From: a bacterium
GTDB taxonomy: Bacteria; Planctomycetota; Planctomycetia; Planctomycetales; Planctomycetaceae
Assembly (NCBI GenBank): GCA_016125225.1
Contig: WGME01000003.1
Coordinates: 558,001-622,000, forward strand
Reading direction: 5' to 3'
Length of the DNA stretch: 64,000 nt
A program made the translations under genes and the position numbers. Every line of letters starts with the position of its first letter. Within the stretch, counting starts at the first letter, position 1. Below are positions 23,072 through 42,848 of this stretch, piece by piece. A model generated the notes under the pieces. The model was not told the origin of the DNA, made no database searches, and saw nothing but the letters and a program-made list of their open reading frames with translations.

Positions 23072-25210
23072 GTGTCATCCGACACGCTTGGTTCATCGTC
23101 CGATCAGGGGGATTTTGGCGTGCTCTGGACGACTGCCTTGCTGGCTGCGGCACTCATGCAATCACCGGAAGGTGGAGCGACCACACCTGCCGTGAGCCCA
23201 GCCCCCCCCATCTACGGCGATTCTGCAAGCAGTTACTCGCCACAATGGATGACGATCCCAGGTACCGGCGGCAAACAGTGGGGATTCGAAAATTTCTGGC
23301 CACGCCTAGGTATCAACCATAAGTCGCAAGGCTATGGCTACGACAGTGGTTACACCAGCTTCGACACCTTCGTCCCGCTCTTCCAGGAAGATTTCAGCAA
23401 GCTCACCGCGTTTCAGGGCAATATGCTCATCGACAACTACGGTGACTTGGGTTTCAACGCGGGATTAGTCCATCGCCATCATGTCGACACGATGGAACGG
23501 ATTTTCGGCGGCAACATCTTCTACACCAACCGTCAGCAGGGCGGTAACAGTTTCAATCAAATCGGGTTCGGCGTCGAAACACTCGGCAACTATCTCGACT
23601 GGCGTGCCAACGGGTACATTCCGCTGGGTGATGATTTCCAGATCCCGAACTCGGGCGGTGGCGTGACCGAAGCGTTCTTTTCGGGACGCAACATTCTGGT
23701 CAATTTCATCGCCGACAAACCCCTCGCGGGCTTCGATACCGAAGTCGGGGGCGTATTGCCCGGTTCGTTCGACATGTTCCGCGGCTATATGGGCTTTTAT
23801 CACTTTCAGGGCAACTACAGCGACGACGTCTGGGGTTATCAGGGCCGCATGGAAGCCCGCCTGCGAGATTCCGGTGTTGCCAGCGTGGCTGTCACCAATG
23901 ACGGAACGTTTGGCACCAATGTCGTCTTTGGAATTGGATTGTGGTTACCTGGTTCGAATCCGCGGAATCCTCCCTGGCATGGTCGGGCGGCCAGCCGGCT
24001 GGCTGAAGATGTTGTCCGCAACCAGAACATCGTCATCGATCGGTCGGCCACCAAAGACCCGGTCGTTGCCAAATGGCTGAATGGTCGCGATATCGAAGTC
24101 GTCCATGTCGACAGCAATTCGGCTCTCCCCGGCTTGGGGACGCCACTTCTGCCTGTCCAGACACTCGCAGTCGGGCAAACGCTCGCCGGTCCGGAATCCA
24201 TCCTTTTTGTGCATGCCAACAGCCAATACAACGGCGAAGGCGTCGTCCTGCAGCCTGGACAACAACTGCTGGGTGAAGGGGTCGAACATACCATCCATTC
24301 ACTTTATGGGTCCTTCATCCTGCCGACCGTCACACCCGCAGAAGATATCGCTTCGGTCCCCACAATCTTTAATGCCCCGGGTGATGCCATTACCCTGGCC
24401 AGCGGCAATGTGGTTTCCGGCTTTCAGATCTTTACCAGCGGCGGCAACGGCATCGCCGGCAGCAATCTCGCCGATGCTGAGTTGACTCGGTTGAACATCA
24501 GCGGATCGAGTGCCAACGGCATCCTGCTCAACAATGCCATCGGCACCATCACCATCGCTGATAACTTTGTGAACAGCAATGCCTTGGCGGGGATCGATGT
24601 CACGATCGCCGGGCTCGAACGCACCAATACGATTACGATTTCTGATAACACCGTTCTGCAAAATCTCGGGGAAGGCATCAGCCTGACCACGAATGGTCAG
24701 TCGACGAACAGTCTCGTGATGGAACAGAACCTCGTGCGTGTCGTACTCGGCCCCACGGATGACCGAAACCTCGCCCTGATTGATATCACGACGAATGATT
24801 CATCACGGCTCAGCGCCCGCATTGAAAACAACGACATCGAAGACAGTTTCAATCGCGATGACACCAGCCCCGATGAAGACCCGTACTATCAACAACTGAC
24901 GCTCACCTCACAAGACAGCAGCCATGTCGATCTGGGATTGATCGAAAACCGTCTGGTTTCCGATCGTCAACCGTTGGCTGGCAACCCGCGCAATGGCTCG
25001 TTCGGCGTCGATCTGAACAGCACCGATCTGTCGACTCTACGAGTACGCCTTGATACGAACAGCAGTTCGCTTAACTACGCGTTCAGCGAAAACTACATCT
25101 CAAGATTCCAACTGGAAGACACGCTCGATACCAATACGGGAACAATGTTCTACTTCCCGACCGCGAATTTCATCGAGACGATCCCAGCGGGCACGATTGA
25201 TCTGCCGTGA
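23072..25210 (+). CDS. Secreted/outer-membrane protein: inverse-autotransporter-like N-terminal region plus parallel beta-helix repeats
   Basis: WPRLGINHKSQGYGYDSGYTSFDTFVPLFQ...NIFYTNRQQGGNSFNQIGFGVETLGNYLDWRANGYIPLG, then N-rich beta-helix-like rungs (NISGSSANGILLNNAIGTITIADNFV). Confidence 0.65.
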   Translation: MSSDTLGSSSDQGDFGVLWTTALLAAALMQSPEGGATTPAVSPAPPIYGDSASSYSPQWMTIPGTGGKQWGFENFWPRLGINHKSQGYGYDSGYTSFDTFVPLFQEDFSKLTAFQGNMLIDNYGDLGFNAGLVHRHHVDTMERIFGGNIFYTNRQQGGNSFNQIGFGVETLGNYLDWRANGYIPLGDDFQIPNSGGGVTEAFFSGRNILVNFIADKPLAGFDTEVGGVLPGSFDMFRGYMGFYHFQGNYSDDVWGYQGRMEARLRDSGVASVAVTNDGTFGTNVVFGIGLWLPGSNPRNPPWHGRAASRLAEDVVRNQNIVIDRSATKDPVVAKWLNGRDIEVVHVDSNSALPGLGTPLLPVQTLAVGQTLAGPESILFVHANSQYNGEGVVLQPGQQLLGEGVEHTIHSLYGSFILPTVTPAEDIASVPTIFNAPGDAITLASGNVVSGFQIFTSGGNGIAGSNLADAELTRLNISGSSANGILLNNAIGTITIADNFVNSNALAGIDVTIAGLERTNTITISDNTVLQNLGEGISLTTNGQSTNSLVMEQNLVRVVLGPTDDRNLALIDITTNDSSRLSARIENNDIEDSFNRDDTSPDEDPYYQQLTLTSQDSSHVDLGLIENRLVSDRQPLAGNPRNGSFGVDLNSTDLSTLRVRLDTNSSSLNYAFSENYISRFQLEDTLDTNTGTMFYFPTANFIETIPAGTIDLP

Positions 25211-26497: not shown

Positions 26498-27586
26498 ATG
26501 TCTTCCCGACATCGTCGTCAGGGGTTTACGTTGATTGAATTGCTGGTGGTGATCGCCATCATTGCCATTCTGATTGCCCTGCTGCTCCCAGCGGTTCAGC
26601 AAGCCCGCGAAGCCGCCCGACGGACTCAATGCCGCAATAATCTGAAGCAACTTGGCCTGGCTCTGCACAACTATCACGACAATTTCAATGCGTTCGTCTA
26701 CCGCAAAGGGGGTTCGAATTCGAGCCAGAACGGCACGCCGCTGCACCCGAACAATAAAGGCCGCTTGAGTGGCTTCATGGGATTGATGCCCTACCTCGAT
26801 CAAGCCCCCCTGTTCAATCGCGTCTCTGCTGGCGACCCGGCGAATGGTGTGGCCCCCGGTGGTCCCGCAGGTTGGCAGGGCTGGGCGACATGGAACGTGC
26901 GCCTGCCTGCGGTGCTCTGCCCGTCCGATGGCTCAACCATCATCAACAACAACTATCACAACTACTTGTTCTGCGTGGGTGACTCGGCACGCAATTGCAA
27001 CGGCAGCACGCAAGTCCGCGGCATTTTCGGTGTGAATGTTTGTGTGGGTCTTCGAGATATCGTCGACGGCAGCAGCAACACCATCATGATGAGTGAAGGA
27101 GTGCGTGGCCAAGGCTTCAGCACCAATCCCAACCCCTCGGCAGCCGGGGGAGACTACCGGTCCATTAACGTCTACGTTTCGAACATGGACCCCATCAACA
27201 ATCCTGTTGCCTGCCGAACTCTTGCCACGAATGGCTTTATCAATGCCGGACAGACCGTCAAAAGTCACCGTGGCCGCATGATGTGGGATGGACAGTTGGA
27301 GCGTGTCGGTTTCAACACCATTCTGCCCCCCAACAGTACGGGGTGCGTGGCCAGCAATAATGTGAATGCCGATTCCAGCGATGGTGCCCTGCCACCTTCT
27401 AGCCACCACGTTGGCGGGGTTCACTGCCTGTTTGCTGATGGAGCCGTACGGTTCATCAGCGAGAACATCAGCACGGGGAATCTGGGCATTGCCAGCCCCA
27501 ATCAGAATGGTTCTGGTTTAAGCCCGTACGGAGTCTGGGGTGCTCTCGGAAGTAAGAGCGGTAACGAAACCGCATCGAATTTCTAG
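26498..27586 (+). CDS. DUF1559 domain protein with prepilin-type N-terminal methylation motif
   Basis: [57 protein letters not shown]-terminal [21 protein letters not shown]. Confidence 0.97.
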
Positions 27587-27952: not shown

Positions 27953-29032
27953 ATGCATGTTCCTCGGTCTCGATCTGGTTTCACGCTGATCGAATTGCTG
28001 GTGGTGATCGCCATCATCGCAATTCTGATTGCCTTGCTGCTCCCCGCCGTGCAGCAGGCTCGCGAGGCAGCTCGCCGTACTCAATGCCGCAACAATCTGA
28101 AGCAACTCGGCTTGGCGCTGCACAACTACCACGACAACTTTAACGCCTTCGTTTACCGCAAGGGCGGCAACAACACCTGCACGGTAACCGCTCCGTATAC
28201 TACCCGCGATAACTGCGGCCGACTGAGCGGTTTCTATGGCATCCTGCCCTACATGGATCAGGCCCCACTGTTCAATCAGATTTCGGCTGGCAGCAGCACT
28301 GTTCCCCCCGGCGGCCCAGAAGGTTGGTCCGGCTGGACCACTTGGGCAGCCACAATTCCCGGATTGCTCTGCCCTTCAGACGGCTCGTCGCTTGTTCAGA
28401 ACTATCGTCACAACTATCTGTTCAGCATTGGTGACTCGGCCCGTAACACGGTCAGCAGCGGCCAGGTCCGTGGTATGTTCGGCACCAATGTCTGTGTGGG
28501 TATTCGCGACGTCATCGACGGTACCAGCAATACCATCATGATGAGCGAAGGGATTCGTGGCACCAGCAACTCAAACATCGCTGCGACCGCTGGTGGCGAT
28601 TACCGTGCGACGACCGTTGTGATTATGAATCAGGACCCCGTCAACAATCCGGGGGCCTGCCGTGCCCTCGTGACCAACGGTTATGTGAACGCTGGTCTGC
28701 AAGTGAAAACATTCCGCGGAAACATGATGTGGGATGGTCAATCGGAACGCGTGGGCTTCACCACTATCGTGGCTCCGAACAGCCCGGCCTGTGCCGCAGG
28801 TAACAACACCAATGCTGACTCAACCGACAACGCGATGCCTCCCACCAGCCAGCACACCGGTGGTGTTCACTGCCTGATGGCCGATGGTGCAGTTCGCTTT
28901 GTCAGCGAAAACATCAACACGGGCAATCAGGGAACGGCCAGCCCTGCCCAGAACAGCGCCGGGTTGAGCCCTTACGGTGTCTGGGGTGCTTTGGGCAGCA
29001 AAAGCGGTGGCGAAACCGTCAGCGACTTCTAA
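27953..29032 (+). CDS. DUF1559 domain protein, tandem paralog
   Basis: Near-identical prepilin N-terminus and high similarity to 26498..27586. Confidence 0.97.
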
Positions 29033-31659: not shown

Positions 31660-34600
31660 TTACAGCGTGAAACTCAAGAGACTGGGCATACTGCTGAACA
31701 GCCCGGCGTTGAGTTCACTGACGTCGGTGAGATTGATCGTGATCACCGCTTTGCGGAACAGCCCTTGCTGATTCATCACCTGCACCGTGACGTTGAACGT
31801 AGGCCGTGTTTCAAAGTCGAGGGCCGCCGCACGGTTGACGGAGATGAGGCCGTTATTTGCATTGATACGGAAGGCGCTACCGACATTCCCACCGGTAATG
31901 CTGTAAGTCAGCGTGTCGCCGATATCGGGCGAGCTCGCAACCACATCTCCCACGACCGTTCCGCTGGGACTGTTCTCGGCAACGGTGAATGTTTGCGGCG
32001 AGACGTACGGCTTACCCCCGATATCCGTCAGGTTGATCGTCATCACGGCTTTGCGGAAATCGCTATTCTGATTCATCACTTGCACGGTGACGTTGAACGT
32101 GGGGTTCGTTTCGAAGTCGAGGGCATTAATGTTGTTGACCGTTATTTGCCCGGTTGATGAATTGATGGCGAAGGCCTGATTCGTATTGCCCCCCGTAAGG
32201 CTGTAGGTCAGCGTGTCACTGCGATCCAGAGGAGTCGCAACAACGGTGCCGACCACAGACCCATTGGGTCGATTCTCCGGAATGGTAAACATCTGCGGTG
32301 AGATGTTCGGCTTGCCAGAGATGTCGAGGACATTGATTGTCATGACCGCTTTGCGGTACAGCCCCCCCATGTCAGTCACCTGGACCGTCAGGCTGTAAGT
32401 CGAGAGCGTTTCGTAATCGAGTGCAGCCGCATTTGCGACGGTGATGGCACCGGTCGTGCTGTTGATTGCGAACACTCTGCCGATATTGCCCCCAGTGATG
32501 CTGTAGGTGACCGAATCGCCCGCATCCTCATCCGAAGCCACAACCGTCCCGACCGTGGTGCCGTTTGTCGCATTCTCGGGAACCGAGAAGGTTTGGGGCA
32601 CGACCGCCGGTTTCTCCGGCTTATCGGTGAGATTGATGGTGAGCGTGGTTTTCCGCGTGTAGTTTGCCGAGTCCGTGGCAGCAATACGCAGATTGAAGGT
32701 TCCCAAGGTTTCAAAGTCGATAGGCACGCTGTTGTTGACCGTGATTTCGCCGGTCGCACTGTTGATCGCGAAGGCGTTGCCGACGTTGCCCCCTGTGATC
32801 GAGTAGGTCAAGGTATCATTCGGGTCGGCATCGATGGCGGCGACTGTTGCCACCGAACTGCCGTTGCCCAGGTGTTCGACAATCGATACAGGCATTAGCG
32901 TTTCAAAGTACGGCGTGACATTGCCGCGGTAGAGGCGGTTGAAGATGCCGTAGTTGCTGCCATCCTGGCCAAAGCTGGTCCAGGTCACCGCGAAGTCTCC
33001 CTCGTCGTTCATGGCGACCGATGAGAACCATTGATAGTTCGTGGTGAAGGTGTTCACGAGGAACTCGCCGCCGACCGCTGTGCCAGTGTTGTCGAAGCGT
33101 TGGGCATAAACTCCGTAACCACTGCCATCGTGGTAATAGTCAGACCAGGTGACAATAAAGTCCCCGTCGGCGTCCATCGCAATTGCAGGGATAAATTGAT
33201 TGCCCACCGTGGTCGTATTCACCAGGAACTCACTGCCCACCGCGGCTCCTGTGGCATCGTACCGTTGAGCATAACTTCCGTACGCACTGCCATCTTGATT
33301 TACGCTCTGCCAGGAGATCACAAAATCCCCCGCGTCATCCATGGCGATACGTGAATGCCGCTGAGTGTCCGTCGTGAACGAATTCACTCGGAATTCGCTG
33401 CCCTGCGCGGCTCCCGTCGCATCGTAGCGTTGGGCATAAACTCCCGATCCACTGCCATCTTGCGCGGCGTAATTGGTCCAGGTGACGACAAAATCTCCGT
33501 CAGCGTTCATGGCTACCGATGATTCGGCCTGACTTCCCGTTGTGAAGGTGTTCACCCGGAACTCCGATCCCTGAGCGACACCGCTGGAATCGTAGCGCTG
33601 GGCATAGACCCCATAACTGAAGCTGTCCTGGTCCGAGATCCAGGTAATGACATAGTCACCATCGGCATCCATGGCCACAGCGGGAAAGCGCTGCGTGCCG
33701 GTGGTGGTTGTGTTGACCAGAAATTCTGTTCCCTGGGCGACCCCCAGCGCGTTGTACCGCTGGGCATACACGCCATAACCGCTACCATCCTGGCCAAAGC
33801 TCGACCATGCGATCACAAAGTCACCATCAGCGTCCATCGCCACCGATGCATGATTCTGCGTATTTGTGGTAGTGGTGTTCACCCGAAATTCGGCACCTTG
33901 TGCGAGACCCTGGGCATTAAATCGTTGCGCATAAATCCCGTACGCACTGCCATCCTGCTCATAGCTAGCCCAGGCGATGACGTAGTTGCCATCGGCATCC
34001 ATCGCGATATTAGGTTGTGTCGATACGTCAAAAGTCTGGCGGTCCGTCGTGTAGGTATTGACCTGGAAATCATTCCCGGTGGGCACCATGTCAACGACGC
34101 GGAACTGCAGCGAGAAGTCGCCTCCCGCGGTGCTGTTGTCATCGCCATCAAGCATGTTGCCGGCAAGATCGGTGATGGTTTCTTTCGCGATGAGTTGATA
34201 CGTCCCCACGGCCAAGGGTTCCGTGGCAAAGGTCAGCAAGGCCTCGTAATTCCCGGTCGCCATGTTCAGACCGAAGGAAATGTTGTCGATGCGGCCCGGC
34301 TGTTCGACTCCGTTGCGGAAGATCGACCAGTTGGACGTATCGGTGACACTTCCTGCCCCCATTGTCTCTAGATCTTCCGAGAAGACCACGGTCATGGTGG
34401 CCGGACTGGTGAGGAGTTGACCATTTGCATCCAAGGACTGGCCATTCACGAGGACATCGGTGACCGTGGGGGCCGTGTTATCCGCCGAGCCATAGCGCTG
34501 GGCGAAGATGCCGTAGCTGCTACCATCCTGTTGATAGCTCATCCAGGCGATCACGAAATCCCCGTCGGCATCCATCGCCACACTGGGGTACGATTGAGTG

Positions 34601-35814
34601 CTGGTGGTGTAGGTGTTGACCTGGAATTCACCGCCGTCGGCTACCCCTGCCGCGGTGTACTGCTGGGCGAAGATGCCATAAGCGCTGCCGTCCTGGTCGT
34701 ATCCCATCCAGGTGATCACGAAGTCTCCATCCGCATCCATCGCGACCCGGGGGTAAACTTCGTAGCTGGTGGTCAATGTGTTAACCAGAAATTCACTCCC
34801 TTGCGCGACCCCGGCCGCGTTGTACCGCTGGGCATAAATGCCATAGCGGCTGTTGATGCCTTCCTGGCTGTAGCTCATCCAGGTGACAACGAAGTCCCCA
34901 TCGGCGTCCATCGCTACACTGGAGAAAAATTGGTTGCTAGTGGTATAGGAATTGACCAGGAATTCGCCTCCCTGGGCCACACCCGCCGCGTTATACCGCT
35001 GCGCCACGATGCCACTTCCATTGCCGTCCACACCATTGCTGTGCCATGAAATGACAAAGTCCCCATCGGCATCCATCGCCACCGCGGCAAACGTCTGACT
35101 TCCTGTGGTATAGGTATTGACTTGAAATTCGCTCCCTTGGGCCACCCCTGCCGCGTCATACCGCTGCGCAAAGATTCCATAGGCACTGCCGTCCTGGCCG
35201 GAGCTGCGCCAGGTGATCACGAAATCTCCACCGGCATCCATCGCCACTGACGGACTTATCTGAGTGCCCGTAGTGAAGGTATTGACCTGAAATTCGGTCC
35301 CCTGGGCCACACCCGCGGCGTTATACCGCTGCGCAAAAATGCCGTCGCCACTGCCGTCCTGGCCGTTGCTGCTCCAGGTGATCACGAAGTCCCCATCGGC
35401 ATCCATCGCCACGGCCGAATAGATCTGGGTGCCGGTGGTGTAGGTGTTGACCTGGAACTCGCTTCCCTGGGCGACACCCGCAGCGTCGTAGCGTTGGGCA
35501 AAGATTCCGTAACCGTTCCCATCTTGTGCGAAGCTCGCCCAGGTGACCACAAAATTGCCGTCCGCATCAGTAGCGATCGACTGCGAGGATTCGATGTAGA
35601 GGGACTGCGCGCTGGTGGTGAACGTGTTGACCTGGAATTCGCTGCCGACGGGCGAGGCGGACAGCAGCAATCGCGGCTCGTAAGCCTGCGTGAGTGCCGG
35701 GACTTGCAACGGCCGTGGCTGGCGGCGTTCGCGACGAGCTCTGAACTGAGACAGACCGCGAGAACGTAATGCCCGCAACCAATGACGAACCATGACAGCA
35801 GCCCTCCGTGGCAA
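31660..35814 (-). CDS. Giant secreted repeat protein A: LEPR-XLL-like N-terminus, 7 + 7 propeller-like repeats around an Ig-like domain, 4 cadherin-like repeats
   Basis: ALTQAYEPRLLLSASP; 14 copies of [GSEFQVNTYTT..VAMDADGDFVITW..DGSGYGIFAQRYNAAGVAQ]; cadherin-like ENxxNGTVVGTVxAxDxDxGDTLTYSITGGN; tail LFSSMPSLLSFTL. Confidence 0.85.
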   Translation of the reverse strand: MPRRAAVMVRHWLRALRSRGLSQFRARRERRQPRPLQVPALTQAYEPRLLLSASPVGSEFQVNTFTTSAQSLYIESSQSIATDADGNFVVTWASFAQDGNGYGIFAQRYDAAGVAQGSEFQVNTYTTGTQIYSAVAMDADGDFVITWSSNGQDGSGDGIFAQRYNAAGVAQGTEFQVNTFTTGTQISPSVAMDAGGDFVITWRSSGQDGSAYGIFAQRYDAAGVAQGSEFQVNTYTTGSQTFAAVAMDADGDFVISWHSNGVDGNGSGIVAQRYNAAGVAQGGEFLVNSYTTSNQFFSSVAMDADGDFVVTWMSYSQEGINSRYGIYAQRYNAAGVAQGSEFLVNTLTTSYEVYPRVAMDADGDFVITWMGYDQDGSAYGIFAQQYTAAGVADGGEFQVNTYTTSTQSYPSVAMDADGDFVIAWMSYQQDGSSYGIFAQRYGSADNTAPTVTDVLVNGQSLDANGQLLTSPATMTVVFSEDLETMGAGSVTDTSNWSIFRNGVEQPGRIDNISFGLNMATGNYEALLTFATEPLAVGTYQLIAKETITDLAGNMLDGDDNSTAGGDFSLQFRVVDMVPTGNDFQVNTYTTDRQTFDVSTQPNIAMDADGNYVIAWASYEQDGSAYGIYAQRFNAQGLAQGAEFRVNTTTTNTQNHASVAMDADGDFVIAWSSFGQDGSGYGVYAQRYNALGVAQGTEFLVNTTTTGTQRFPAVAMDADGDYVITWISDQDSFSYGVYAQRYDSSGVAQGSEFRVNTFTTGSQAESSVAMNADGDFVVTWTNYAAQDGSGSGVYAQRYDATGAAQGSEFRVNSFTTDTQRHSRIAMDDAGDFVISWQSVNQDGSAYGSYAQRYDATGAAVGSEFLVNTTTVGNQFIPAIAMDADGDFIVTWSDYYHDGSGYGVYAQRFDNTGTAVGGEFLVNTFTTNYQWFSSVAMNDEGDFAVTWTSFGQDGSNYGIFNRLYRGNVTPYFETLMPVSIVEHLGNGSSVATVAAIDADPNDTLTYSITGGNVGNAFAINSATGEITVNNSVPIDFETLGTFNLRIAATDSANYTRKTTLTINLTDKPEKPAVVPQTFSVPENATNGTTVGTVVASDEDAGDSVTYSITGGNIGRVFAINSTTGAITVANAAALDYETLSTYSLTVQVTDMGGLYRKAVMTINVLDISGKPNISPQMFTIPENRPNGSVVGTVVATPLDRSDTLTYSLTGGNTNQAFAINSSTGQITVNNINALDFETNPTFNVTVQVMNQNSDFRKAVMTINLTDIGGKPYVSPQTFTVAENSPSGTVVGDVVASSPDIGDTLTYSITGGNVGSAFRINANNGLISVNRAAALDFETRPTFNVTVQVMNQQGLFRKAVITINLTDVSELNAGLFSSMPSLLSFTL
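32925..35655 (-). repeat. About 165-bp coding repeats, two blocks of 7 (boundaries approximate)
   Basis: Counted 7 copies on each side of the Big_5-like spacer (about 34080-34490). Confidence 0.85.
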
Positions 35815-36122
35815 CGTAGCCGGCGCGAAATTTGATAAGTATAAGGCAAATGCCCTACACCATTCCGAAGCAGTTTACAGCGTTTCACCGCATTCGCAAC
35901 TGAGTCGATGCCCGCATTTTGTATCACCTCGAAACCGGAGCCGGCTGGATTCGCCGCGCCTAATTCACGTCCTTGCGTCTGTGATAAGGGTCACGCTTGC
36001 TTACGGGCTGAACCGCAATCGTCACAATCTCCTCTTCGATGGTGACAACCAAGCGGGCTTCAAAGTCTTCCTTGATGCGACCGATTTTGACCTGGGCATC
36101 GGCTTCGATCGAATTCTGTAGA

Positions 36123-36272
36123 TTGGTCAGATATGCCATCTCATGCAGGCTCTCACGCACAGAACGGTGCGAGATTAAGACAACCGCGGCACTCCAGGGA
36201 ATTCCCGTCAGCGAATTCATCCGCCGGAAGATCCTCAGTACCAAGAATCAGATGGCGACTTTGCAAAGGTGA
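36123..36272 (+). CDS. Possible small ribbon-helix-helix (CopG/DUF1778-like) antitoxin or remnant
   Basis: TTG start gives MVRYAISCRLSRTERCEIKTTAALQGIPVSEFIRRKILSTKNQMATLQR, resembling RLSxEERxxIxxAAxLxGxSVSEFIRxxIL. Confidence 0.35.
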   Translation: MVRYAISCRLSRTERCEIKTTAALQGIPVSEFIRRKILSTKNQMATLQR

Positions 36273-36321
36273 CTTCGGCCAAAGTGACTACGTGTTACCC
36301 GTCGATGCGGTTCGTCGGCTC

Positions 36322-39300
36322 TTACAATGTAAAGCTCATCAGGCTGGGCATAGTGCTGAAGAGGTCGTCGTCTTCGTCGGCGAGGAGGCTGGCGTTGAGT
36401 TCGGCGACGTTGTTGAGGTTGATCGTCATGACTGCCTTGCGGGATGAACCCTGGTTGTCGGTCACCTGGACGGTGAGACTGAATGTGGGGCGGGTTTCGA
36501 AATCGAGAGCCGTAGAATTGGTGACGGTGATCTCGCCCGTGAGGCTGTTGATCGCGAAGGCACTGCTGACGTTGCCGCCGGTGATGGCATAGGTCAGCGT
36601 GTTGCCGGCATCTGGATCGCTGGCGATGACTGTGCCGACTACGGTGCCATTCGTGCTGTTCTCATCGACGTTGAAGACTTGCGGGGAGACATCGGGCTGC
36701 TCGTTCACATCGGTGACGTTGATGGTCATCACGGCTTTACGGAAGGCCCCACTCAAGTCGGTCGCCTGGACCGTGACATTGAACGTCGGGAGCGTCTCAA
36801 AGTCGATGGCATACGCTCGGCGAACGGTAATCTGCCCCGTGGTCGCGTTGATGTCGAAGGCTTTGTTGACGTTGCCGCCGGTGATGGCGTAGGTCAGGGA
36901 GTCTCCCGCATCGACATCACTCGCCACGATGTTGGCGACCACGCTGTTGTTGGCCGCGTTCTCGACGATAGAGAATGTCTGCGGGGAGATGGACGGCTTC
37001 TGATTCGAAACGTTGATGCTCATCACCGCCTTGCGAAACGCACCGTGACTATCCGTAGCCTGAATGGTGAGGCTGTAGACCGGCAAGGTCATCGGGTCGA
37101 GAGCGGATGCCTTAGCAAGCGTAATGTCGCCGGTCATGGCATCGACGGCGAAGGCTTTGCCGACGTTGCCGCCGGTGATGGCGTAAGTGATCGTGTCGCC
37201 GCTGTCCTGATCGGTGGCCATCGCGTTGCCGACAACGGTGCCGTTGGCAGCAGCCGGTGTCACATAGAAACTCAGTGGTGAGATAGAAGGCGTATCGTTG
37301 ACGTCGTTCAGGTTGACGGTGATGTTGGCCTTCTTGAAGGCACCGAGATTGTCGGTAGCCTGCACGCGGAGAGTGAAGCTTGCCAGCGTTTCAAAGTCGA
37401 GGGCGAACGCCCGGCGGACGGTGATCTCGCCGGTGTTGGGGTTGATATCGAAGGCCTTGTTGACATTACCGCCTGTGAAATTGTAGGTGAGGGTGTTGAA
37501 GCTGTCGGGGTCGGTGGCGAGCGGAGTGCCGACGACAGTCCCGACGGCAGCGGCTTCATCGATCGCGAGAGTCTGATCAGCAAAAACGGGGGCAGTGTTC
37601 GTGAAATACCGCTGAGCGTAAATGCCGTAGCTGCTGCCGTCCTGAAGATTGCTTTCCCAGGCGACAACGAAATCGCCGTCCGCGTCCATCGCCACTGAAG
37701 ACTGGAATTGGCGGTTGGTCGTGTAGGAGTTGATCCGGAACTCAGTGTCTTGTGCGATACCCGCCGCGTTGTAACGTTGCGCGTAAATCCCGAAGTCACT
37801 CCCATCCTGAAGGTAGCTCTCCCAGACGATGACGAAATCGCCATCCGCGTCCATCGCCACCGAGGGACCGTTTTGCTGGCTCGTGGTGTGAGTATTGACT
37901 TGGAACTCGGTCCCCTGTGTCACACCCAATGCATTGTAACGCTGGGCGTAAATGCCATATTCGCTGCCATCCTGACCACCACTCTGCCAGGCAATGACGA
38001 AGTCACCGTCCGCATCCATCGCTACCGAAGGATCGTATTGGTAGATCGTCGTGTAAGTATTGACCTGAAATTCGCTCCCCTGTGCCACACCCCAAGCGTT
38101 GTAACGCTGGGCGCTAATGCCGAGGCCGCTGCCGTCCGGGCCGAAGCTCTGCCAGGCGATGACGAAATCGCCGTCGGCATCCATAGCCACCGAGGGAGCA
38201 TTTTGGGGATTGTTCGTAAAGGTATTGACCTGAAACTCACTCCCCTGTGCCACACCGGCCGCGTTATAGCGCTGAGCAAAAATCCCATATCCACTGCCAT
38301 CCTGGGCGTAGCTCTGCCAGGTGATGACGAAATCACCATTCGCGTCCATCGCGACCGAGGGAGTACTTTGGGAGCTGGTCGTGTAGGTATTGACCTGGAA
38401 TTCGCTCCCCTGCGCCACACCAGCCGCGTTGTAGCGCTGAGCATAAATTCCGTAGTCGCTACCATCCTGTGTGTAGCTCTGCCAGGCGATGACGAAGTCA
38501 CCATCTGCATCCATCGCGACGGAAGGTTTGTTTTGGCGGTTGGCGGTGACCGTATTGACCAGGAATTCGCTCCCCTGTGCCACACCGGCCGCGTTGTAAC
38601 GCTGAGCATAAATCCCGTAGAGGCTGCCGTCCTGACCATTGCTCTGCCAGGCGATGACATAGTTGCCATCTGTGTCCATCGCGACAGATGCGAGACCTTG
38701 ATAGTTGTTTGTGTATGTATTGACCTGGAATTCCGGGCCGCTGAAGACTGGAGTCTGTACAGTGAAAGTGCGGGTGAAGTCGCCGCCGGGAGTGCCGTTG
38801 ACGTCGCCATCGAGAGCGTTGCCGGCGAGGTCGGTGATGGAACTCGTCCCATTCGCGGTCAGAACGTAAGCTCCGTCGGCTAATGCTCCGGAGAATGTGA
38901 GCACGGCCTCGAACTTGCCAGTGGTAATGTTCTCACCGAAGCTGATCGACTGAATCAAACTGCTGACGTCGTTGCCATCCTGCGTGAGTGACCAGTTGGC
39001 GGGATTGGTGACGCTGTTGGCCCCTGTCACGCCGCCGGTGACCGAGAGATCTTCCGAGAAGATCACCGTGAGCGTATCCGGGGCACTGGCCAACCGGTCG
39101 TTTTCGTAAATCGGAGTGCCGTTGGCAATCACATCCGTGACGATCGGCCCGGCATCATCCGCGGCATCGGGTCCTGCCTCTGCATAGCGCTGGGCGAAGA
39201 CGCCGAAGTCTGAGCCGTCCTGAAGATCGCTGGCCCATGCGACGACAAAATCGCCATCGGCATCCATCGCAATTGCCGGGTACAACTGTGAGTTTGTGGT

Positions 39301-40443
39301 GAAGGTGTTGACTTGAAACTCACTGCCGACCATCGCGCCAGCGTCATTGAACTGCTGCCCGAAGATGCCTCCGAGACTACCATCCTGGCTGAAGCTCGAC
39401 CAGACAATGGTGAAGTCGCCATCGGCATCCAGGGCGATATTCGGTGAGTTTTGTGTATTCGTGGTCGTCGTGTTGACCTGGAACTCACTTCCCAAGGCGG
39501 TCCCCGAAGCGTCAAAACGTTGAGCTGATACGCCGCTTGAATCATCATCTGGACCGTCCCACGCGATGACAAAGTTGCCGGCGGCATCCATGGCAATGAC
39601 AGGAGCACCCTGTTCGCCAGTTGTGACCGTGTTGACCTGAAACTCGCTGCCCTGGGCGACACCGGCCGCATCGTACCGCTGAGCGTAGATGCCGTAATCG
39701 TTATCGTTATTGCCGTAGCCTGACCAAACAATCACAAAATCACCCACGGCGTCCATGGCAACTTTGGCATAGATCTGAATGTCTGTGGTGACCGTGTTGA
39801 CCTGAAACTCACTCCCCTGAGCGACACCAGCGGCATTGAAACGCTGGGCGACGATCCCTTCCTGATCGCCATCGATCGAGATCTGATGCCAGGCGACGAC
39901 AAAGTCGCCATCCGCATCCATGGCGACATCGGGGAAGCCGCCCGTGCTGACCGAAGAACTACCGATCTCGAATTCCGTTCCCTGCTTCACACCCTGGGCG
40001 TTGTACCTCTGTCCGAAGATGCCGTTACCGGAATAATCCCACACTACGACAAAATCGCCATCCGCATCCATCGCCACAACAGGGCGGAATTGATTGCTCG
40101 TGGTAACCGTATTGACGAGAAATTCATCTCCCACAGCCGTGCCAGCACTGTCATAGCGCTGACCGACGATCGCGAAGCCGCTGCCATCCTGGCCATCACT
40201 GGTCCAGACAGCGACAAAGTCGCCATCTGCATCCATCGCAATATCGGGCAGATATTGGGTACCCGACGTGAACGTATTGACCTGGAACTCACTCCCCGCA
40301 GGAGACGCCGACAGCAGCAGGCGTGGTTCATAGGGCTGCACGAGCGCAGGTGCGTGCGAAGCAACCCGCAGACGACGCCCGCGACTCCGCGTGAGGTGAG
40401 ACAGACATCGCGTACGCAATCCAGCCAACCAGTGAAACTTCAT
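36322..40443 (-). CDS. Giant secreted repeat protein B, paralog of 31660..35814 with the same architecture
   Basis: PALVQPYEPRLLLSASP; 7 repeats, Ig-like, 7 repeats, 4 cadherin-like; tail LFSTMPSLMSFTL. Confidence 0.85.
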   Translation of the reverse strand: MKFHWLAGLRTRCLSHLTRSRGRRLRVASHAPALVQPYEPRLLLSASPAGSEFQVNTFTSGTQYLPDIAMDADGDFVAVWTSDGQDGSGFAIVGQRYDSAGTAVGDEFLVNTVTTSNQFRPVVAMDADGDFVVVWDYSGNGIFGQRYNAQGVKQGTEFEIGSSSVSTGGFPDVAMDADGDFVVAWHQISIDGDQEGIVAQRFNAAGVAQGSEFQVNTVTTDIQIYAKVAMDAVGDFVIVWSGYGNNDNDYGIYAQRYDAAGVAQGSEFQVNTVTTGEQGAPVIAMDAAGNFVIAWDGPDDDSSGVSAQRFDASGTALGSEFQVNTTTTNTQNSPNIALDADGDFTIVWSSFSQDGSLGGIFGQQFNDAGAMVGSEFQVNTFTTNSQLYPAIAMDADGDFVVAWASDLQDGSDFGVFAQRYAEAGPDAADDAGPIVTDVIANGTPIYENDRLASAPDTLTVIFSEDLSVTGGVTGANSVTNPANWSLTQDGNDVSSLIQSISFGENITTGKFEAVLTFSGALADGAYVLTANGTSSITDLAGNALDGDVNGTPGGDFTRTFTVQTPVFSGPEFQVNTYTNNYQGLASVAMDTDGNYVIAWQSNGQDGSLYGIYAQRYNAAGVAQGSEFLVNTVTANRQNKPSVAMDADGDFVIAWQSYTQDGSDYGIYAQRYNAAGVAQGSEFQVNTYTTSSQSTPSVAMDANGDFVITWQSYAQDGSGYGIFAQRYNAAGVAQGSEFQVNTFTNNPQNAPSVAMDADGDFVIAWQSFGPDGSGLGISAQRYNAWGVAQGSEFQVNTYTTIYQYDPSVAMDADGDFVIAWQSGGQDGSEYGIYAQRYNALGVTQGTEFQVNTHTTSQQNGPSVAMDADGDFVIVWESYLQDGSDFGIYAQRYNAAGIAQDTEFRINSYTTNRQFQSSVAMDADGDFVVAWESNLQDGSSYGIYAQRYFTNTAPVFADQTLAIDEAAAVGTVVGTPLATDPDSFNTLTYNFTGGNVNKAFDINPNTGEITVRRAFALDFETLASFTLRVQATDNLGAFKKANITVNLNDVNDTPSISPLSFYVTPAAANGTVVGNAMATDQDSGDTITYAITGGNVGKAFAVDAMTGDITLAKASALDPMTLPVYSLTIQATDSHGAFRKAVMSINVSNQKPSISPQTFSIVENAANNSVVANIVASDVDAGDSLTYAITGGNVNKAFDINATTGQITVRRAYAIDFETLPTFNVTVQATDLSGAFRKAVMTINVTDVNEQPDVSPQVFNVDENSTNGTVVGTVIASDPDAGNTLTYAITGGNVSSAFAINSLTGEITVTNSTALDFETRPTFSLTVQVTDNQGSSRKAVMTINLNNVAELNASLLADEDDDLFSTMPSLMSFTL
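37595..40295 (-). repeat. About 165-bp coding repeats, two blocks of 7 (boundaries approximate)
   Basis: Counted 7 copies on each side of the Big_5-like spacer (about 38735-39175). Confidence 0.85.
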
Positions 40444-40892
40444 TTCGGACATCTTCCCTGGCAAGAAACTCCGAGACGGAGTCCCTGCGTGACACAGCAG
40501 ACACAAACTAACGAATTGAAAGGTCTGCCGAGAGAATGCCATAACCGTGCAATGCATACAATGCATTTGCTGTGAATCGCTTGGATGCCAGATCAGTCGT
40601 GCTACTGTACTGACTGGCCTTGGAGCATCTGTAACGCGCTAACGCCTTGTTATTTCTCAGCTGATCGCAGATTAGTTAGGCTGTAAGCTATAGGCTCTTG
40701 ATCTCAGCAGTTGTCGATCCATGACAGACATATCCCCACCTTGATCGGCCCCGATAATGAGATGCGTCGACGCTCAGATTCTCACAGGGTGAGTGTCTAC
40801 TCGATCCAAGAGTTGCAGTACGGATCAAACCGGATCTCCGTCGTTCGCGGCCATCCAGGCCAACCGGGCACGGTCGAGCTTTCCATGGTAAG

Positions 40893-41343: not shown

Positions 41344-42420
41344 TTACATCGCTTGATCGCTCATGAATTCGGCTGTCGCCATGCGATAAGCCTTTGGCTG
41401 TTTCAGCGAATAAATGGCCTTCAGAATTCGGCGAGTGAAGTTCTGGTAGTATGAGTCGTTGGTGCCACGCACTGGATGACCACAGAGCCAGGCACCGGTA
41501 TCGCGTTCCACCTCGTCGTGCAGCGTAGAACACGTCTTGCGGAAGTCTTCGAAATCGGCCGTGACGCCGGCTTTCGCACAGATGCGATGCCAGGCAGCAT
41601 AGAAAGCCTTGCCCTTGTTGAAATCGGGAAACACTCGATCGCTGTCGATGCGCAAAGCTCGTACTCGATCGAGGTGTGCTCTGGCACACCGATTCAACGG
41701 CGTTGCTTGAAACTTGCAGGTCTTGCGAGATTGGTAGTAAACCGCACCATAACGGAACTCGTTCCAACGAAAGTCTGACCATTTCAACCCACAAAGGTCC
41801 CAGGTTCGCGGGCCCGTGTTGAGCGCCAGGACCATTGCCGTCCGCCACAACAGAGGATTGTAAAGCGATCGAATTCGACACTGACCCGAAAGGACGCAGG
41901 CATCGGCGGCCTCGTACAAAGCCGTCATCTGCTTGCGTGAGTAAATGAATGCCAGGGTTCGTTGTCGGGGTAGAGGTTTGGGGATTTGGCAGAATGGCAC
42001 CAAACCTAAACCACCTGGGTTGTGGCGGTCGGCAGGCCAGAGCGGCGTGATCATTGCGGCCAGTGTTCTCAGGATCTTGTTGACTGTGGCGGGAGAACGT
42101 TTGGTTTTCTTCGTACCGATCTTGATCGACTCGGTCATCAATCGCTTGCGGAATCCCCGTAAGATCTCTGGCGTGATCTGTCCAACGGCTGGGTTTGTTG
42201 TGAGACGCTCCCAGTGCCGTAGAACGGTTGCGTTTTCGACGAGTGTCGAAGCCGGGCCTTCGCAAATATCGGGAAATTTGTGGTGCTCGTAGCATGCTCG
42301 AAGAGTTGAGTGAGCCGAGACCCGCGAAGCTACGAAGAGCTTGATCACGGACGGGTCGGCCGCCGTGAATTTGACCGGGGACGTCATGATATATAGGCTC
42401 CAGCCGTCGTGCGGTCTCAC
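41344..42420 (-). CDS. Tyrosine recombinase/phage integrase-like protein
   Basis: ALNTGPRTWDLCGLKWSDF (box I Arg), SRKTCKFQATPL, FEDFRKTCST, GHPVRGTNDSYYQN (H and Tyr of box II). Confidence 0.8.
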   Translation of the reverse strand: MRPHDGWSLYIMTSPVKFTAADPSVIKLFVASRVSAHSTLRACYEHHKFPDICEGPASTLVENATVLRHWERLTTNPAVGQITPEILRGFRKRLMTESIKIGTKKTKRSPATVNKILRTLAAMITPLWPADRHNPGGLGLVPFCQIPKPLPRQRTLAFIYSRKQMTALYEAADACVLSGQCRIRSLYNPLLWRTAMVLALNTGPRTWDLCGLKWSDFRWNEFRYGAVYYQSRKTCKFQATPLNRCARAHLDRVRALRIDSDRVFPDFNKGKAFYAAWHRICAKAGVTADFEDFRKTCSTLHDEVERDTGAWLCGHPVRGTNDSYYQNFTRRILKAIYSLKQPKAYRMATAEFMSDQAM

Positions 42421-42641: not shown

Positions 42642-42774
42642 GTGTTCGGGTGGAGAGAGGGTCAGAAACTTGGAAATGGCTGGAAAAGCCGAGACCGAAG
42701 TCTCTGTTTACAAGCTATCCTGAATTCTCCTGTCCCTACGGCAGGAGCCTCATCCTCGTTTTCTCGCTGCTAAG

Positions 42775-42848
42775 CGAGGCCGACGGGGCTCGAACCCGCA
42801 ACCTCCGGATCGACAGTCCGGTGCTCTAACCAATTGAGCTACAGCCCC
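42775..42848 (-). tRNA. tRNA-Asp (GTC)
   Basis: Reverse complement GGGGCTGTAGCTCAATTGGTTAGAGCACCGGACTGTCGATCCGGAGGTTGCGGGTTCGAGCCCCGTCGGCCTCG folds as a cloverleaf; anticodon loop CTGTCGA. Confidence 0.95.

What the first reader, a model, noticed from the sequence alone, without database searches (positions are those of the whole stretch)
31660..40443. Two giant paralogs with invariant 7+7 repeat layout: probable paired seven-bladed beta-propellers
In each protein I count exactly seven copies of a ~55-aa unit (GSEFQVNTYTT..SVAMDADGDFVITWQSxxQDGSGYGIYAQRYNAAGVAQ), then a Big_5/Ig-like spacer (VFSEDL...ITDLAGNxLDGD), then exactly seven more, then four cadherin-like repeats. Simple tandem arrays usually drift in copy number; keeping 7 + 7 in two diverged paralogs points to closed seven-bladed propellers. 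The alternating hydrophobic FVITW and GIYAQRY segments fit blade strands.
Basis: partly seen in the sequence, partly recalled or inferred. Interest (0 to 1): 0.75.

Follow-up and report, generated by a model that had tools for sequence, protein, structure and literature searches.

The report
Secreted proteins with paired seven-bladed propellers
Two neighbouring genes of a planctomycete encode large, probably secreted proteins that each carry two seven-part ring domains (beta-propellers) and a cadherin-like stalk; relatives in many bacterial phyla almost always carry their repeats in exact sevens, up to eight rings in one protein, yet the repeat has no entry of its own in Pfam.

Summary
Both proteins hold 7 + 7 units of ~55 aa separated by a ~135-aa Ig-like spacer, then four cadherin domains. 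The propeller reading is supported: AlphaFold2 folds one block with pLDDT 96 and pTM 0.94, and the best solved match is CylK, a seven-bladed propeller (TM 0.78). Homologs in many phyla give the strongest evidence. In 199 intact arrays, 179 have 7, 14 or 28 units; finished plasmids carry strings of up to 8 x 7 blades. The seventh blade normally lacks its outer strand, which the N-terminal strand can supply (velcro closure). In this genome's paralogs, blades at equal positions are no more alike than blades at shifted positions, so 7 is not simply inherited blade by blade; it looks enforced by ring closure. About eight arrays (4, 5, 6 or 8 units) seem real exceptions or assembly errors. No Pfam or NCBIfam model passes credibly and no PDB sequence matches, so this is an undescribed sequence family of a well-known fold. 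Export signals differ by phylum (LEPR-like motif, RTX, T9SS tail, a neighbouring T1SS), pointing to secreted surface proteins, most likely adhesive or matrix-binding. The ligand is unknown.

The parts
31660..35793 (-). Protein A: LEPR-like motif, ring 1 (7 blades), Ig-like spacer, ring 2 (7 blades), 4 cadherin domains (start codon revised from 35814 by comparison with paralogs)
35647..35685 (-). EPRLLLSA motif (LEPR-XLL-like export motif) directly before ring 1 of protein A
   Evidence: (NCBIfam LEPR-8K, below cut-off), paralog comparison
34483..35646 (-). Protein A ring 1: seven 55-aa blades
34078..34482 (-). Protein A inter-ring spacer, probably Ig-like
   Evidence: Big_5, below cut-off
32926..34077 (-). 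Protein A ring 2: seven blades
31711..32886 (-). Protein A: four cadherin domains
36322..40443 (-). Protein B: same architecture (start codon 40443 by comparison with paralogs; longest ORF begins at 40566)
40297..40335 (-). EPRLLLSA motif directly before ring 1 of protein B
39172..40296 (-). Protein B ring 1: seven blades
38740..39171 (-). Protein B inter-ring spacer, probably Ig-like
   Evidence: Big_13, below cut-off
37600..38739 (-). Protein B ring 2: seven blades; the block whose structure was predicted
36397..37566 (-). Protein B: four cadherin domains

Best explanation
Each protein is exported and carries two closed seven-bladed beta-propellers (seven a-b-c strand triplets plus outer strands, the last outer strand supplied by the N-terminus), joined by an Ig-like spacer and followed by a cadherin stalk, which is expected to be stiffened by calcium. 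The number seven is held by ring closure: recombination between similar blades may replace or amplify blades, but arrays that cannot close are rarely kept. The rings most likely act as ligand-binding heads, for glycan or matrix, of secreted surface adhesins. Shown or strongly predicted: repeat layout, fold, strict sevens, export-linked architectures of homologs. Inferred: cell-surface location in this species, adhesion, the kind of ligand, and selection by closure as the cause of the sevens. The confidence given is for the fold and the sevens; for the adhesin role I would put about 0.6.
For: Fold: AF2 pLDDT 96.3, pTM 0.94 with 85 homologous blocks; strand pattern E2-8 followed by seven triplets of ~8-residue strands; Foldseek top hits are CylK propellers (TMq 0.78, E 2.5e-14) and then other propellers. 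Copy number: intact arrays of >=4 units are 7 (170), 14 (7), 28 (2) against 20 others, many of the others explained by frameshift, interruption or a weak blade. All 16 arrays in the nine paralogs of this genome are 7. Whole-genome totals of unit matches in 9 of 12 genomes of mostly other phyla are exactly 7 or 14. Finished plasmids: 8 x 7 in a 6274-aa ORF of Rhodobacteraceae SC52, 14 + 14 in Pantoea, 14 in Azospirillum. Closure: 92% of seventh blades end at model position <=52 against 6% of blades 1-6. Independent amplification or exchange: equal-position identity equals shifted-position identity among this genome's rings, while close Nostoc orthologs show a clear register, 0.92 against ~0.71. 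Export: LEPR-like motif, RTX repeats in Nostoc and a planctomycete, Por secretion tail in Bacteroidota, an adjacent T1SS in Pantoea. Cadherins x4.
Against: The two-ring model is of low confidence (pTM 0.48). The LEPR model is below NCBIfam's cut-off. A handful of homologs have 4, 5, 6 or 8 units without a stop or frameshift (L193, L160, L141, L126, L114, L100; possibly also the 4-unit second array of L246), so closure at 7 is not absolute or some assemblies are wrong. Nothing here tests binding or localisation.
Confidence: 0.9

Rival explanations
1. The rings are enzymes or scaffold domains of a matrix enzyme (as in CylK or GH43-like propellers) rather than binding heads.
For: Best fold match is the enzyme CylK; other hits include glycoside hydrolases and sialidases; GH43 scores just above its Pfam cut-off in protein B (36.8 against 32.2).
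Against: GH43 matches short stretches inside the repeats (about 53-99 of 288 profile positions) and looks like repeat-driven similarity. In CylK the essential residues sit at the interface with an N-terminal domain (PMC8916777), and no counterpart of that domain was recognised here. Very similar blades argue against a unique active site.
Confidence: 0.1
2. The 7 + 7 layout is merely inherited from a recent duplication, with no constraint on copy number.
For: The two genes are adjacent and share the whole architecture (59% identity over both rings).
Against: Sevens recur across phyla and in strings of up to eight rings, and blades of paralogous rings show no positional correspondence. C-terminal cadherin-like counts vary (mostly 3 or 4) in the same paralog set while blade counts do not.
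Confidence: 0.04
3. The blocks are open beads or a solenoid rather than a closed ring.
For: Consecutive arrays of 14 or 28 without a marked boundary exist (L207, L260, parts of L069).
Confidence: 0.03

Closest known systems
CylK C-terminal seven-bladed propeller (PDB 7fh6, 7ron; PMC8916777)
   Same: Seven four-stranded blades; best Foldseek match (TMq 0.78). CylK has Ca2+ sites bridging each blade junction, which may or may not be shared
   Different: 15% identity, not found by sequence profile; CylK has one ring fused to an N-terminal Ca-binding domain and is an enzyme
Highly repetitive beta-propellers (WD40/WRAP, VCBS; Pereira and Lupas 2022, PMC9218822)
   Same: Very similar blades; evidence of amplification from single blades rather than blade-by-blade inheritance
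   Different: Those lineages show a continuum of blade numbers; here counts are almost always multiples of 7, in strings of rings. The Pfam scans gave no credible WD40, VCBS or FG-GAP match
VCBS/integrin propellers (PMC8023676)
   Same: Acidic loop between strands A and B: DxDxDG there, DADGD here, between the first two strands of each blade
   Different: The sixth position is F or Y rather than G; no FG-GAP/VCBS match in Pfam scans; Ca2+ binding not tested
NCBIfam NF053835 PDIAV motif-containing lipoprotein
   Same: Sub-threshold match over about 200 aa of the ring (E 7e-10 to 4e-11); perhaps a remote relative
   Different: 38.9-42.8 bits against a cut-off of 90
Bap1/RbmC biofilm adhesins of Vibrio cholerae (PMC10102183)
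   Same: Secreted modular adhesins in which a beta-propeller binds matrix polysaccharide: what this may work like
   Different: No sequence relation was tested; modular make-up differs

Membership tests
Seven-bladed beta-propeller fold | Seven four-stranded blades arranged in a ring | tested here: met
   AF2 pLDDT 96.3, pTM 0.94; Foldseek to CylK TMq 0.78. Prediction, not experiment
Seven-bladed beta-propeller fold | Velcro closure: last blade completed by the N-terminal strand | tested here: met
   N-terminal strand E2-8 in the model; seventh blade truncated (model position <=52) in 92% of rings. Pairing of the two strands was not inspected atom by atom
CylK enzyme family | Sequence homology detectable by profile | tested here: not met
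   No PDB sequence match with the block or blade profile apart from chance hits
CylK enzyme family | N-terminal Ca2+-binding domain with catalytic Arg and propeller Tyr at the interface | tested here: inconclusive
   Ring 1 follows the N-terminal export motif directly and no such domain was recognised; catalytic residues were not aligned
VCBS/FG-GAP propellers | Match to FG-GAP/VCBS profile | tested here: not met
   No such family at E <= 1 in Pfam scans
VCBS/FG-GAP propellers | DxDxDG Ca2+ loop AB | tested here: inconclusive
   Loop AB reads D-A-D-G-D-F/Y: three acidic positions kept, final G absent; ion binding not testable
WD40 superfamily propellers | Match to WD40 profile | tested here: not met
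   No WD40-type family above cut-off
Glycoside hydrolase family 43 | Full-length GH43 profile match | tested here: not met
   Only about 53-99 of 288 profile positions, inside the repeats
LEPR-XLL exported planctomycete proteins | NCBIfam LEPR-8K above cut-off | tested here: not met
   13.2 bits against 17, 12 of 24 positions, though the motif is present in all nine paralogs with variation
Cadherin-domain proteins | PF00028 repeats above cut-off | tested here: met
   Four in each protein

The most novel reading that the evidence does not exclude
A pan-bacterial, unnamed family of secreted propellers in which blade number is quantised: blades are amplified and exchanged freely, but the count is held at exact multiples of seven, even in strings of up to eight rings (56 blades) in one chain, so that ring closure itself proofreads repeat number. 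Other repetitive propeller lineages are reported to show a continuum.
Probability: 0.35. Interest if true: 0.65.

Novelty: new member of a known kind. Interest (0 to 1): 0.48.

Why it matters
The family is widespread, has no Pfam model of its own and no solved member found by sequence, and gives many natural replicates of one question: what fixes the number of blades in a propeller when the blades are very similar? The rare 4-, 5-, 6- and 8-unit members are natural mutants for that test. It also marks a class of secreted, probably adhesive, proteins in environmental bacteria that are annotated only as hypothetical, calcium-binding or Ig-like.

Tried and rejected
Pfam hits to GH43, CopC, Excalibur, DUF3923 and others inside the repeats were rejected as repeat-driven partial matches. 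The two-ring AF2 model was too weak to use. The LFSxMPSLLSFTL tail was tested as a general sorting signal: a degenerate pattern found it only in three of the propeller proteins themselves. A duplicated attachment site for the nearby tRNA-Asp/recombinase was looked for in the window and not found. Literature searches for blade motifs found nothing.

Full report
What is there. Two ORFs lie in tandem on the minus strand, 31660-35814 and 36322-40566. N-termini of paralogs elsewhere in the genome mostly begin M-x-x-x-W-L, which places the likely starts at about 35793 and 40443. Each protein reads: basic N-terminus, an EPRLLLSA motif, seven ~55-aa units, a ~135-aa spacer, seven more units, four cadherin domains. 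The motif resembles the planctomycete LEPR-XLL domain but scores 13.2 bits against a cut-off of 17. The spacer is weakly Ig-like. The whole genome (6.35 Mb) has nine such proteins, seven with 7 + 7 units and two with a single 7.

Fold. An alignment of 85 seven-unit blocks from the window and from genomes found by the search for related loci gave an AlphaFold2 model of ring 2 of protein B with mean pLDDT 96.3 and pTM 0.94. It shows one N-terminal strand followed by seven triplets of ~8-residue strands with short outer strands between them. Foldseek against the PDB puts the seven-bladed propeller enzyme CylK first (TM-score on the query 0.78, E 2.5e-14, 15% identity), followed by other propellers. 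A profile search of PDB sequences finds no relative. A model of both rings with the spacer was of low confidence (11 sequences, pTM 0.48), so the arrangement of the rings is open.

Copy number. A blade HMM, retrained on the homologs, was used to count units in ORFs of all fetched loci. Of 199 intact arrays with at least four units, 170 have 7, seven have 14 and two have 28. A few loci are duplicates of one another (for example L081/L192, L158/L253). The set is biased because its query was a 7-unit block, but the searches with one or two units give the same picture: 16 of 16 arrays in this genome, and 24 arrays of 7 and four of 14 in the class-wide sample. In a further 12 genomes, mostly of other phyla, searched whole with one unit, nine have exactly 7 or 14 unit matches in total. 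Finished plasmids, where assembly collapse is less likely, carry 8 x 7 (Rhodobacteraceae SC52, one 6274-aa ORF), 6 + 5 x 7 in one frame (Rhodovulum P5, where the ring with 6 lies at the start of the frame), 14 + 14 (Pantoea, with a profile retrained on these records) and 14 (Azospirillum). In G040 six rings alternate with ~185-aa PKD-like spacers.

Exceptions. Of the non-multiples, several are frameshifted (L138, L144, L123), interrupted (L199, 3 + 4), degenerate (L076, L197) or have one weak blade (L078, L079). L114 (6 and 5), L100 (8, with two identical adjacent units), L126 (6), L141 (5), L160 (4) and L193 (4) have no such explanation; they are draft or metagenome assemblies of very similar repeats, so collapse or fresh unequal recombination are both possible. 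The 4-unit second array of L246 was not inspected, and L068 has one array of 6.

Closure. The seventh blade ends at model position 50 (median) against 54 for blades 1-6; 92% of seventh blades but 6% of others end at or before 52. The missing part is the run into the outer strand, and the block's N-terminal strand (E2-8 in the model) is the matching extra piece. In L073, four adjacent rings are marked only by this truncation at every seventh unit.

Inheritance or enforcement. If the 7 + 7 were only inherited, blade i of one paralog should resemble blade i of another. It does not: between rings of this genome, same-position identity is 0.610 and different-position 0.602; for interior blades 0.612 and 0.610. 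The test has power: Nostoc rings L084 and L092 give 0.92 in register and about 0.71 out of it, and the six rings of L067 keep a weaker register. So blades have been exchanged or amplified within the family while the count stayed at seven. Pereira and Lupas (PMC9218822) described independent amplification in other lineages, but with a continuum of blade numbers. As an internal control, C-terminal cadherin-like counts in the paralogs vary (mostly 3 or 4) while blade counts do not.

Function. Architectures point to export by whatever route the phylum uses: LEPR-like motifs here, RTX repeats in Nostoc and in a planctomycete, a type IX secretion tail in Cytophaga and Reichenbachiella, Calx-beta in Nocardioides, and in Pantoea an ORF with many Ig domains directly beside TolC, ABC transporter and HlyD genes of a type I system. 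Together with cadherin, Ig and PKD stalks this fits secreted surface adhesins or matrix proteins. A known analogue, not a relative by any test made here, is the matrix-binding propeller of Bap1 and RbmC (PMC10102183). The acidic DADGD turn lies in the loop between the first two strands of each blade, where integrin and VCBS propellers bind calcium (PMC8023676), and CylK has calcium at its blade junctions (PMC8916777); whether these rings bind calcium is untested. The ligand is unknown.

Standing. The fold is well known; the sequence family appears undescribed in Pfam and NCBIfam (nearest NCBIfam model NF053835, far below cut-off), and its motifs were not found in the literature library. AlphaFold DB, ECOD and InterPro could not be searched.

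Noticed in passing
window 41344-42420 (-) and 42774-42848 (-): A tyrosine recombinase (Phage_integrase, E 3e-7) beside a tRNA-Asp gene, just upstream of protein B; possibly a mobile island. No duplicated tRNA end was found in the window and G+C is flat.
   Followed up: partly
C-termini at 31660-31700 and 36322-36370, and paralogs L032, L033, L034, L036: Related C-terminal tails (LFSxMPSLLSFTL and variants) in six of the nine paralogs; a degenerate pattern matched only three places in the genome, all in these proteins.
   Followed up: partly
window 23072-25210 (+): Protein with an inverse-autotransporter beta-domain (IAT_beta, E 9e-12) and a beta-helix region, an unexpected outer-membrane type for this group.
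   Followed up: no
window 26498-27586 and 27953-29032 (+): Tandem pair of DUF1559 proteins with type IV pilin-like N-terminal methylation motif.
   Followed up: no
L066 (G047:C1, around 3,077,000): Open frame of 17,855 codons containing two adjacent seven-bladed rings: a giant planctomycete protein.
   Followed up: no
L258 12618-31412 (CP049029.1): Eight rings of seven blades (56 blades) in one plasmid-encoded protein annotated as tandem-95 repeat protein.
   Followed up: partly
Blade 1 of both rings of protein A and of several paralogs (L031, L032, L035): The first blade often carries a 5-aa insertion before strand a (60 instead of 55 aa), a positional mark next to the closure site.
   Followed up: no
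L161 (IMG/VR contig, 8191 bases): One ring in a contig filed as viral; may be bacterial sequence.
   Followed up: no
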